Assembly: GCF_000011345.1 (NCBI RefSeq)
Contig: NC_004113.1
Coordinates: forward strand, 1,736,001 to 1,800,000
Origin: Thermosynechococcus vestitus BP-1
GTDB taxonomy: Bacteria > Cyanobacteriota > Cyanobacteriia > Thermosynechococcales > Thermosynechococcaceae
DNA length: 64,000 nucleotides
Direction of reading: 5' to 3'
Position numbers and translations under genes: made by a program. Shown here in pieces: positions 17,122 to 17,204 of this stretch. The notes under the pieces were generated by a model. It saw only the letters and a list, made by a program, of their open reading frames with translations, did not search any database and had not been told where the DNA came from. Position 1 is the stretch's first letter. Each line of letters begins with the position of its first letter.

Positions 17122-17204
17122 CGCGTTCCTTCGGGACAACTGCCCTACTTCCGTCTTCGCTGCTCACCCAAGTTTTCAGGTGCGCTCTAGCGAAGATGAA
17201 CGAT
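17122..17204 (-). promoter_or_regulatory. Glutamine riboswitch (glnA RNA motif)
   Basis: Read on the minus strand, the leader of the DUF4278 gene has all the conserved blocks of the glnA RNA in order. The P1 5' strand is in ATCGTTCATC (17204-17195). A long stem follows with TCTTCGCT and AGCGAAGA (17196-17189 and 17161-17154). Next comes the loop-E-like block GACGGAAGTAGGG, then a GGG/CCC hairpin, then CCGAAGGAACGCG closing P1 (GAACG pairs with CGTTC). The 3' end is 46 bases before the gene start. Known glnA RNAs bind L-glutamine and control nitrogen genes in cyanobacteria. Confidence 0.9.

What the first reader, a model, noticed from the sequence alone, without database searches (positions are those of the whole stretch)
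17122..17204. Glutamine riboswitch in front of a long DUF4278 (PirA-like) gene
Seen: on the minus strand all glnA RNA blocks occur in order (CGTTCATC, a long P2 stem, GACGGAAGTAGGG, CCGAAGGAACG), with P1 complementarity. The next gene encodes DUF4278. Known (from memory): glnA RNAs bind glutamine and control nitrogen genes in cyanobacteria, and the PII-interacting PirA is a DUF4278 protein. Inference: this gene is a glutamine-responsive PII or arginine-pathway effector. It is roughly three times PirA's length as I recall it, with an added helical C-terminal half, so it may be a new branch.
Basis: partly seen in the sequence, partly recalled or inferred. Interest (0 to 1): 0.78.

Follow-up and report, generated by a model that had tools for sequence, protein, structure and literature searches.

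The report
Glutamine riboswitch controlling gifB (IF17)
The RNA switch is real, but the gene behind it is not a long PirA: it is gifB, a known type of gene whose protein (IF17) shuts down glutamine synthetase when the cyanobacterium has enough glutamine.

Summary
The riboswitch is real: Rfam RF01739 at 17204-17120 (-), 53.0 bits against a cut-off of 35. The gene reading is wrong. DUF4278 covers only the first ~60 residues; [quoted passage not shown]). DUF4278 plus an IF7 domain is the architecture of IF17 (gifB), the proven glutamine-riboswitch target in Synechocystis (PMC6316151). The genome has a second riboswitch-gifB unit. All 11 genomes of the genus examined (Thermosynechococcus) have two, and the review already lists two IF17 homologues in T. 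elongatus. In named cyanobacteria the riboswitch precedes 42 of 45 DUF4278-IF genes and none of the readable IF7-only genes. An anti-Shine-Dalgarno strand next to P1 pairs with the Shine-Dalgarno, which fits translational activation by glutamine. One side result looks new: PirA's family model matches not DUF4278 but a different C-terminal domain, found in separate DUF4278-PirA fusions. Several of these, and one stand-alone PirA, do sit behind glutamine riboswitches, in other genera. The window gene itself is ordinary.

The parts
17253..17266 (-). candidate NtcA-type operator GTAAATTTTTGTAA (GTA-N8-TAA), centred about 52 nt before the expected transcription start
   Evidence: conserved in 10 of 11 orthologues, and in the same register in the paralogue (GTA-N8-TGA); one mismatch to GTA-N8-TAC; binding not tested
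17214..17219 (-). candidate -10 element TAGATA
   Evidence: the stretch TTAAATTAGATACAGAAATAAATCGTTCATC is nearly invariant in both paralogues across 11 genomes
17120..17204 (-). type 1 glutamine riboswitch aptamer (glnA RNA), P1/P2/P3, P2 extended by about 28 nt
   Evidence: RF01739, 53.0 bits, E 8.1e-9
17116..17123 (-). anti-Shine-Dalgarno strand CGCCTCAG, directly 3' of P1
   Evidence: pairs with the Shine-Dalgarno over 8 bp; conserved
17082..17089 (-). Shine-Dalgarno TTGGGGCG
   Evidence: 6 nt from the ATG at 17075; sequestered in the predicted folds
16623..17075 (-). gifB: IF17-type glutamine synthetase inactivating factor, 150 aa from the second ATG (152 aa from the ATG at 17081)
   Evidence: DUF4278 at residues 5-60; IF7A domain at residues 90-152, 81.0 bits over a cut-off of 70
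16544..16577 (-). likely intrinsic terminator: CTCGCA...TGCGAG followed by six T
   Evidence: read directly from the sequence

Best explanation
This is a single-gene gifB unit. A type 1 glutamine riboswitch in the 5' leader controls translation of IF17, a small protein that binds and inactivates glutamine synthetase. With little glutamine, the CGCCUCAG strand just 3' of P1 pairs with the Shine-Dalgarno and translation is off. With plenty of glutamine, the ligand-bound aptamer ties up the bases just after P1, the Shine-Dalgarno is released, IF17 is made, and glutamine synthetase is switched off: negative feedback by the enzyme's own product. Transcription is probably repressed by NtcA under nitrogen shortage. 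Shown here: aptamer, domain architecture, conserved promoter stretch, conserved complementarity of anti-Shine-Dalgarno and Shine-Dalgarno, a glnA target in the genome. Inferred: ligand response, direction of switching, inhibition of the enzyme, NtcA repression (all by homology with Synechocystis gifB).
For: RF01739 hit at 53.0 bits. IF7A domain over its curated cut-off and DUF4278 at the N-terminus. A second riboswitch-IF17 unit in the same genome, and two units in each of 11 genomes of the genus. Riboswitch before 42 of 45 DUF4278-IF genes and none of the readable IF7-only genes in named cyanobacteria. Anti-Shine-Dalgarno next to P1 pairs with the Shine-Dalgarno; 53 of 66 leaders have a helix of at least 6 bp, against 22.6 expected from shuffled spacers. 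The only GlnA-family match in the genome is over its cut-off. Published precedent: riboswitch control of IF17 proven in Synechocystis, NtcA repression of gifA and gifB, two IF17 homologues in T. elongatus (PMC6316151).
Against: No ligand binding or enzyme inhibition was measured for this locus. In the predicted folds P1 and the anti-Shine-Dalgarno helix can coexist, so release must come from the 3' tail being engaged in the bound aptamer. I recall such a tertiary pair from the crystal structure but did not test it; blocking three tail bases raised predicted Shine-Dalgarno openness only from about 0.01 to 0.39. Many of the 66 leaders are close relatives, so they are not independent.
Confidence: 0.95

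Rival explanations
1. The gene is a long PirA that binds PII and regulates arginine synthesis.
For: DUF4278 is shared with proteins that do carry a PirA domain.
Against: NF050139 (PirA) did not match this protein even at E up to 1, while NF052599 (IF7A) matched over its cut-off. The only PirA match in the genome is another gene at 300.9 kb, which is DUF4278-PirA without a riboswitch.
Confidence: 0.02
2. The two IF17 paralogues have diverged: one inactivates glutamine synthetase, and the other has a different partner or glutamine threshold.
For: The paralogues are old (each a fully supported clade, and the sister genus also has two) and only 48% identical. The second aptamer has a much longer P2 and scores lower with Rfam in most species.
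Against: The residues conserved across the family, including R94, K105, R107 and R114, are kept in both, as are both expression platforms.
Confidence: 0.25
3. The switch works on transcription (termination) rather than on translation initiation.
For: None found.
Against: No terminator-like hairpin with a T run is seen between aptamer and start codon in the 11 aligned orthologues; the conserved feature there is the anti-Shine-Dalgarno/Shine-Dalgarno pair.
Confidence: 0.05

Closest known systems
gifB (sll1515), IF17 of Synechocystis sp. PCC 6803, with its type 1 glutamine riboswitch (Klahn et al. 2018, as reviewed in PMC6316151)
   Same: glutamine riboswitch in the 5' leader, N-terminal DUF4278, C-terminal IF7-like moiety, about 17 kDa, candidate NtcA box
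   Different: present in two riboswitch-controlled copies here, with no stand-alone IF7 found in the genome; P2 is extended
The two IF17 homologues of Thermosynechococcus elongatus (mentioned in PMC6316151)
   Different: the review passages read here do not describe their riboswitches individually; the 2018 primary paper is not held
PirA (Ssr0692) of Synechocystis
   Same: small nitrogen-excess regulator; some relatives also carry DUF4278
   Different: PirA is the other C-terminal domain (NF050139), which is absent from this protein

Membership tests
Type 1 glutamine riboswitch (RF01739) | covariance-model match over the gathering score, full-length | tested here: met
   53.0 bits against 35, positions 1-53 of 53
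Type 1 glutamine riboswitch (RF01739) | binds L-glutamine | not testable with these tools
   needs in-line probing
IF17 (gifB) | C-terminal moiety homologous to IF7 | tested here: met
   NF052599, 81.0 bits, cut-off 70, residues 90-152
IF17 (gifB) | N-terminal moiety of about 80 residues bearing DUF4278 | tested here: met
   PF14105 at residues 5-60, 66.3 bits
IF17 (gifB) | conserved arginines of the IF domain | tested here: met
   R94, R107, R114 (and K105) invariant in 8 diverse family members; not mapped onto Synechocystis numbering
IF17 (gifB) | inactivates glutamine synthetase type I | not testable with these tools
   one GlnA-family gene is in the genome; inhibition not measured
PirA | match to the PirA family model NF050139 | tested here: not met
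   no match at E up to 1; the genome's only match is at 300,888-300,995

The most novel reading that the evidence does not exclude
Not about the window gene but from its relatives: DUF4278 is a shared N-terminal module fused to either of two nitrogen-excess effectors, IF7 (glutamine synthetase inhibitor) or PirA (PII-binding arginine regulator). In some cyanobacteria the glutamine riboswitch controls both arms, including one stand-alone pirA, so glutamine would directly set PII-arginine signalling as well as glutamine synthetase. This would also mean that the N-terminally extended PirA proteins, whose annotation was in doubt in 2021, are genuine.
Probability: 0.6. Interest if true: 0.5.

Novelty: already known. 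Interest (0 to 1): 0.22.

Why it matters
For the window gene the value is a correct name: gifB/IF17, not PirA. The side result matters more. If the glutamine riboswitch also controls PirA-domain proteins in some genera, one metabolite sensor would couple glutamine synthetase shut-off to arginine synthesis, and the long-PirA question left open by Bolay et al. 2021 becomes directly testable.

Tried and rejected
The PirA reading was rejected by family models. A search of solved structures gave no credible relative. A simple 'P1 excludes the anti-Shine-Dalgarno helix' switch was rejected: both fit in one fold, so the tail-occupancy version is proposed instead. The low Rfam score of the second aptamer is explained by a misplaced 5' half: the full P1 and P2 lie further upstream, behind a longer P2 insertion. 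The primary riboswitch paper (PMC6212724) is not held. No structure prediction was run because the family assignment was already over its curated cut-off. No Synechocystis gifB sequence was obtained, so its published residue numbers could not be mapped.

Full report
Observation. The minus strand at 17204-17120 holds a full-length glutamine riboswitch aptamer (RF01739, 53.0 bits, gathering score 35, E 8.1e-9). The following gene, 17081-16623 (-), carries DUF4278 at residues 5-60 (66.3 bits).

What the gene is. [quoted passage not shown] The same review says that Thermosynechococcus elongatus has two IF17 homologues.

The second copy. The genome holds a second glutamine riboswitch, in front of a second DUF4278-IF gene of 147 aa (77.1 bits for IF7A). 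These two are the only IF-domain genes found in the genome, so no stand-alone IF7 was detected. Eleven of eleven genomes of the genus have two such genes, each with an aptamer upstream. In a tree the two paralogues form two fully supported groups, and the sister genus also has two copies. One of its copies groups with paralogue B (support 99/95); the other falls outside both, with weaker support (84/80) at the fork that joins A and B. The duplication is therefore older than the genus, but its exact point is not settled.

Association test. Among 80 loci from named cyanobacteria, the full aptamer pattern lies upstream of 42 of 45 DUF4278-IF genes and of none of 35 IF7-only loci, one of which (L155) could not be read properly. 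This used a sequence pattern and a motif rule, not a covariance model. The riboswitch therefore goes with the IF17 architecture.

Leader anatomy. Alignment of 11 orthologues and 11 paralogues shows a nearly invariant promoter stretch that ends at the aptamer, a GTA-N8-TAA element about 52 nt upstream of the expected start (candidate NtcA operator), the aptamer, and then CGCGCCTCA followed about 30 nt later by TTGGGGCG. The start is best placed at 17075, the second ATG, because the first ATG is out of frame in one orthologue (L040) and absent in another (L042), and directly adjoins the Shine-Dalgarno. CGCCTCAG pairs with TTGGGGCG over 8 bp. Across cyanobacterial leaders the Shine-Dalgarno is usually GGAGGCG or GGGGCG and is matched by CGCCTC; where the upper strand reads CGCCCCAA, the lower reads TTGGAGGCG, which can pair with one bulged A. 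53 of 66 leaders have at least six contiguous pairs, 22.6 being expected from shuffled spacers; many leaders are related, so this is supportive rather than strong.

Mechanism. The predicted folds hide the Shine-Dalgarno almost fully, with or without the aptamer helices enforced; only blocking the bases directly 3' of P1 opens it partly (0.39 and 0.21 in the two copies). I therefore propose that glutamine binding engages the first bases after P1 and weakens the sequestering helix. From memory, the solved structure of this aptamer class has a ligand-dependent pair using the base just 3' of P1; this was not checked here. Glutamine thus raises IF17 synthesis, which is the published direction in Synechocystis (PMC6316151).

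A by-product about PirA. Other DUF4278 genes behind glutamine riboswitches in the family have a different C-terminal domain, and that domain is PirA. NF050139 matched with 30.1 to 65.6 bits (cut-off 50) at the C-terminus of nine DUF4278 proteins behind riboswitches (L049, eight more), and with 61.3 bits in a 66-aa protein without DUF4278 that follows the riboswitch in L057. In a sample of 146 genomes of the phylum, PirA matches in open frames of 110 aa or more are common (33 places besides this genome); most of those read contain two or more DUF4278-type motifs. Three of those 33 have a riboswitch at the gathering threshold. This genome's own DUF4278-PirA gene (L005, 124 aa, 47 bits) has none. 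Bolay et al. 2021 reported extended PirA annotations in T. elongatus and another strain, did not exclude false annotation, and called their function elusive (PMC8092223). I found no paper in the library that joins the glutamine riboswitch to PirA, but the 2018 primary paper could not be read.

Verdict. The riboswitch is real and the gene is gifB/IF17, an already known arrangement. The by-product on PirA deserves a separate look.

Noticed in passing
L057 (G008), riboswitch 1503-1580, gene about 49 nt downstream: A glutamine riboswitch directly before a 66-aa PirA without DUF4278 (NF050139, 61.3 bits, over cut-off).
   Followed up: partly
L039, L049, L051, L052, L053, L056, L060, L061, L065, L188, L194, L196: DUF4278-PirA fusion genes behind glutamine riboswitches in several genera; bit scores for PirA, where scanned, range from 30 to 66.
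   Followed up: partly
L005 1501-1875 (genome position about 300.6-301.0 kb): This genome's own DUF4278-PirA protein (124 aa), without a riboswitch; probably the 'extended PirA' of T. elongatus in Bolay et al. 2021.
   Followed up: partly
L171 1219-1480 (G131): Glutamine riboswitch followed by a short IF7-like reading frame (38.7 bits, below cut-off) and then a pirA match, possibly one transcript.
   Followed up: no
L038, L062 (G016) and L037 (G018): Glutamine riboswitches before very short proteins (40-64 aa) that are little more than DUF4278, like the marine picocyanobacterial genes.
   Followed up: no
L002 1501-1620: The second aptamer has a long P2 insertion (about 50 nt), so that the Rfam model picks a wrong 5' half and under-scores it in most species of the genus.
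   Followed up: yes
window 17319-17936 (-): Crp/Fnr regulator upstream; best matches are the cyanobacterial PtrA model (180.9 bits, cut-off 300) and NtcA (83 bits, cut-off 245), both under cut-off.
   Followed up: no
window 15947-16510 (+): Convergent 187-aa gene with a weak DUF4388 match (21.4 bits, cut-off 25).
   Followed up: no
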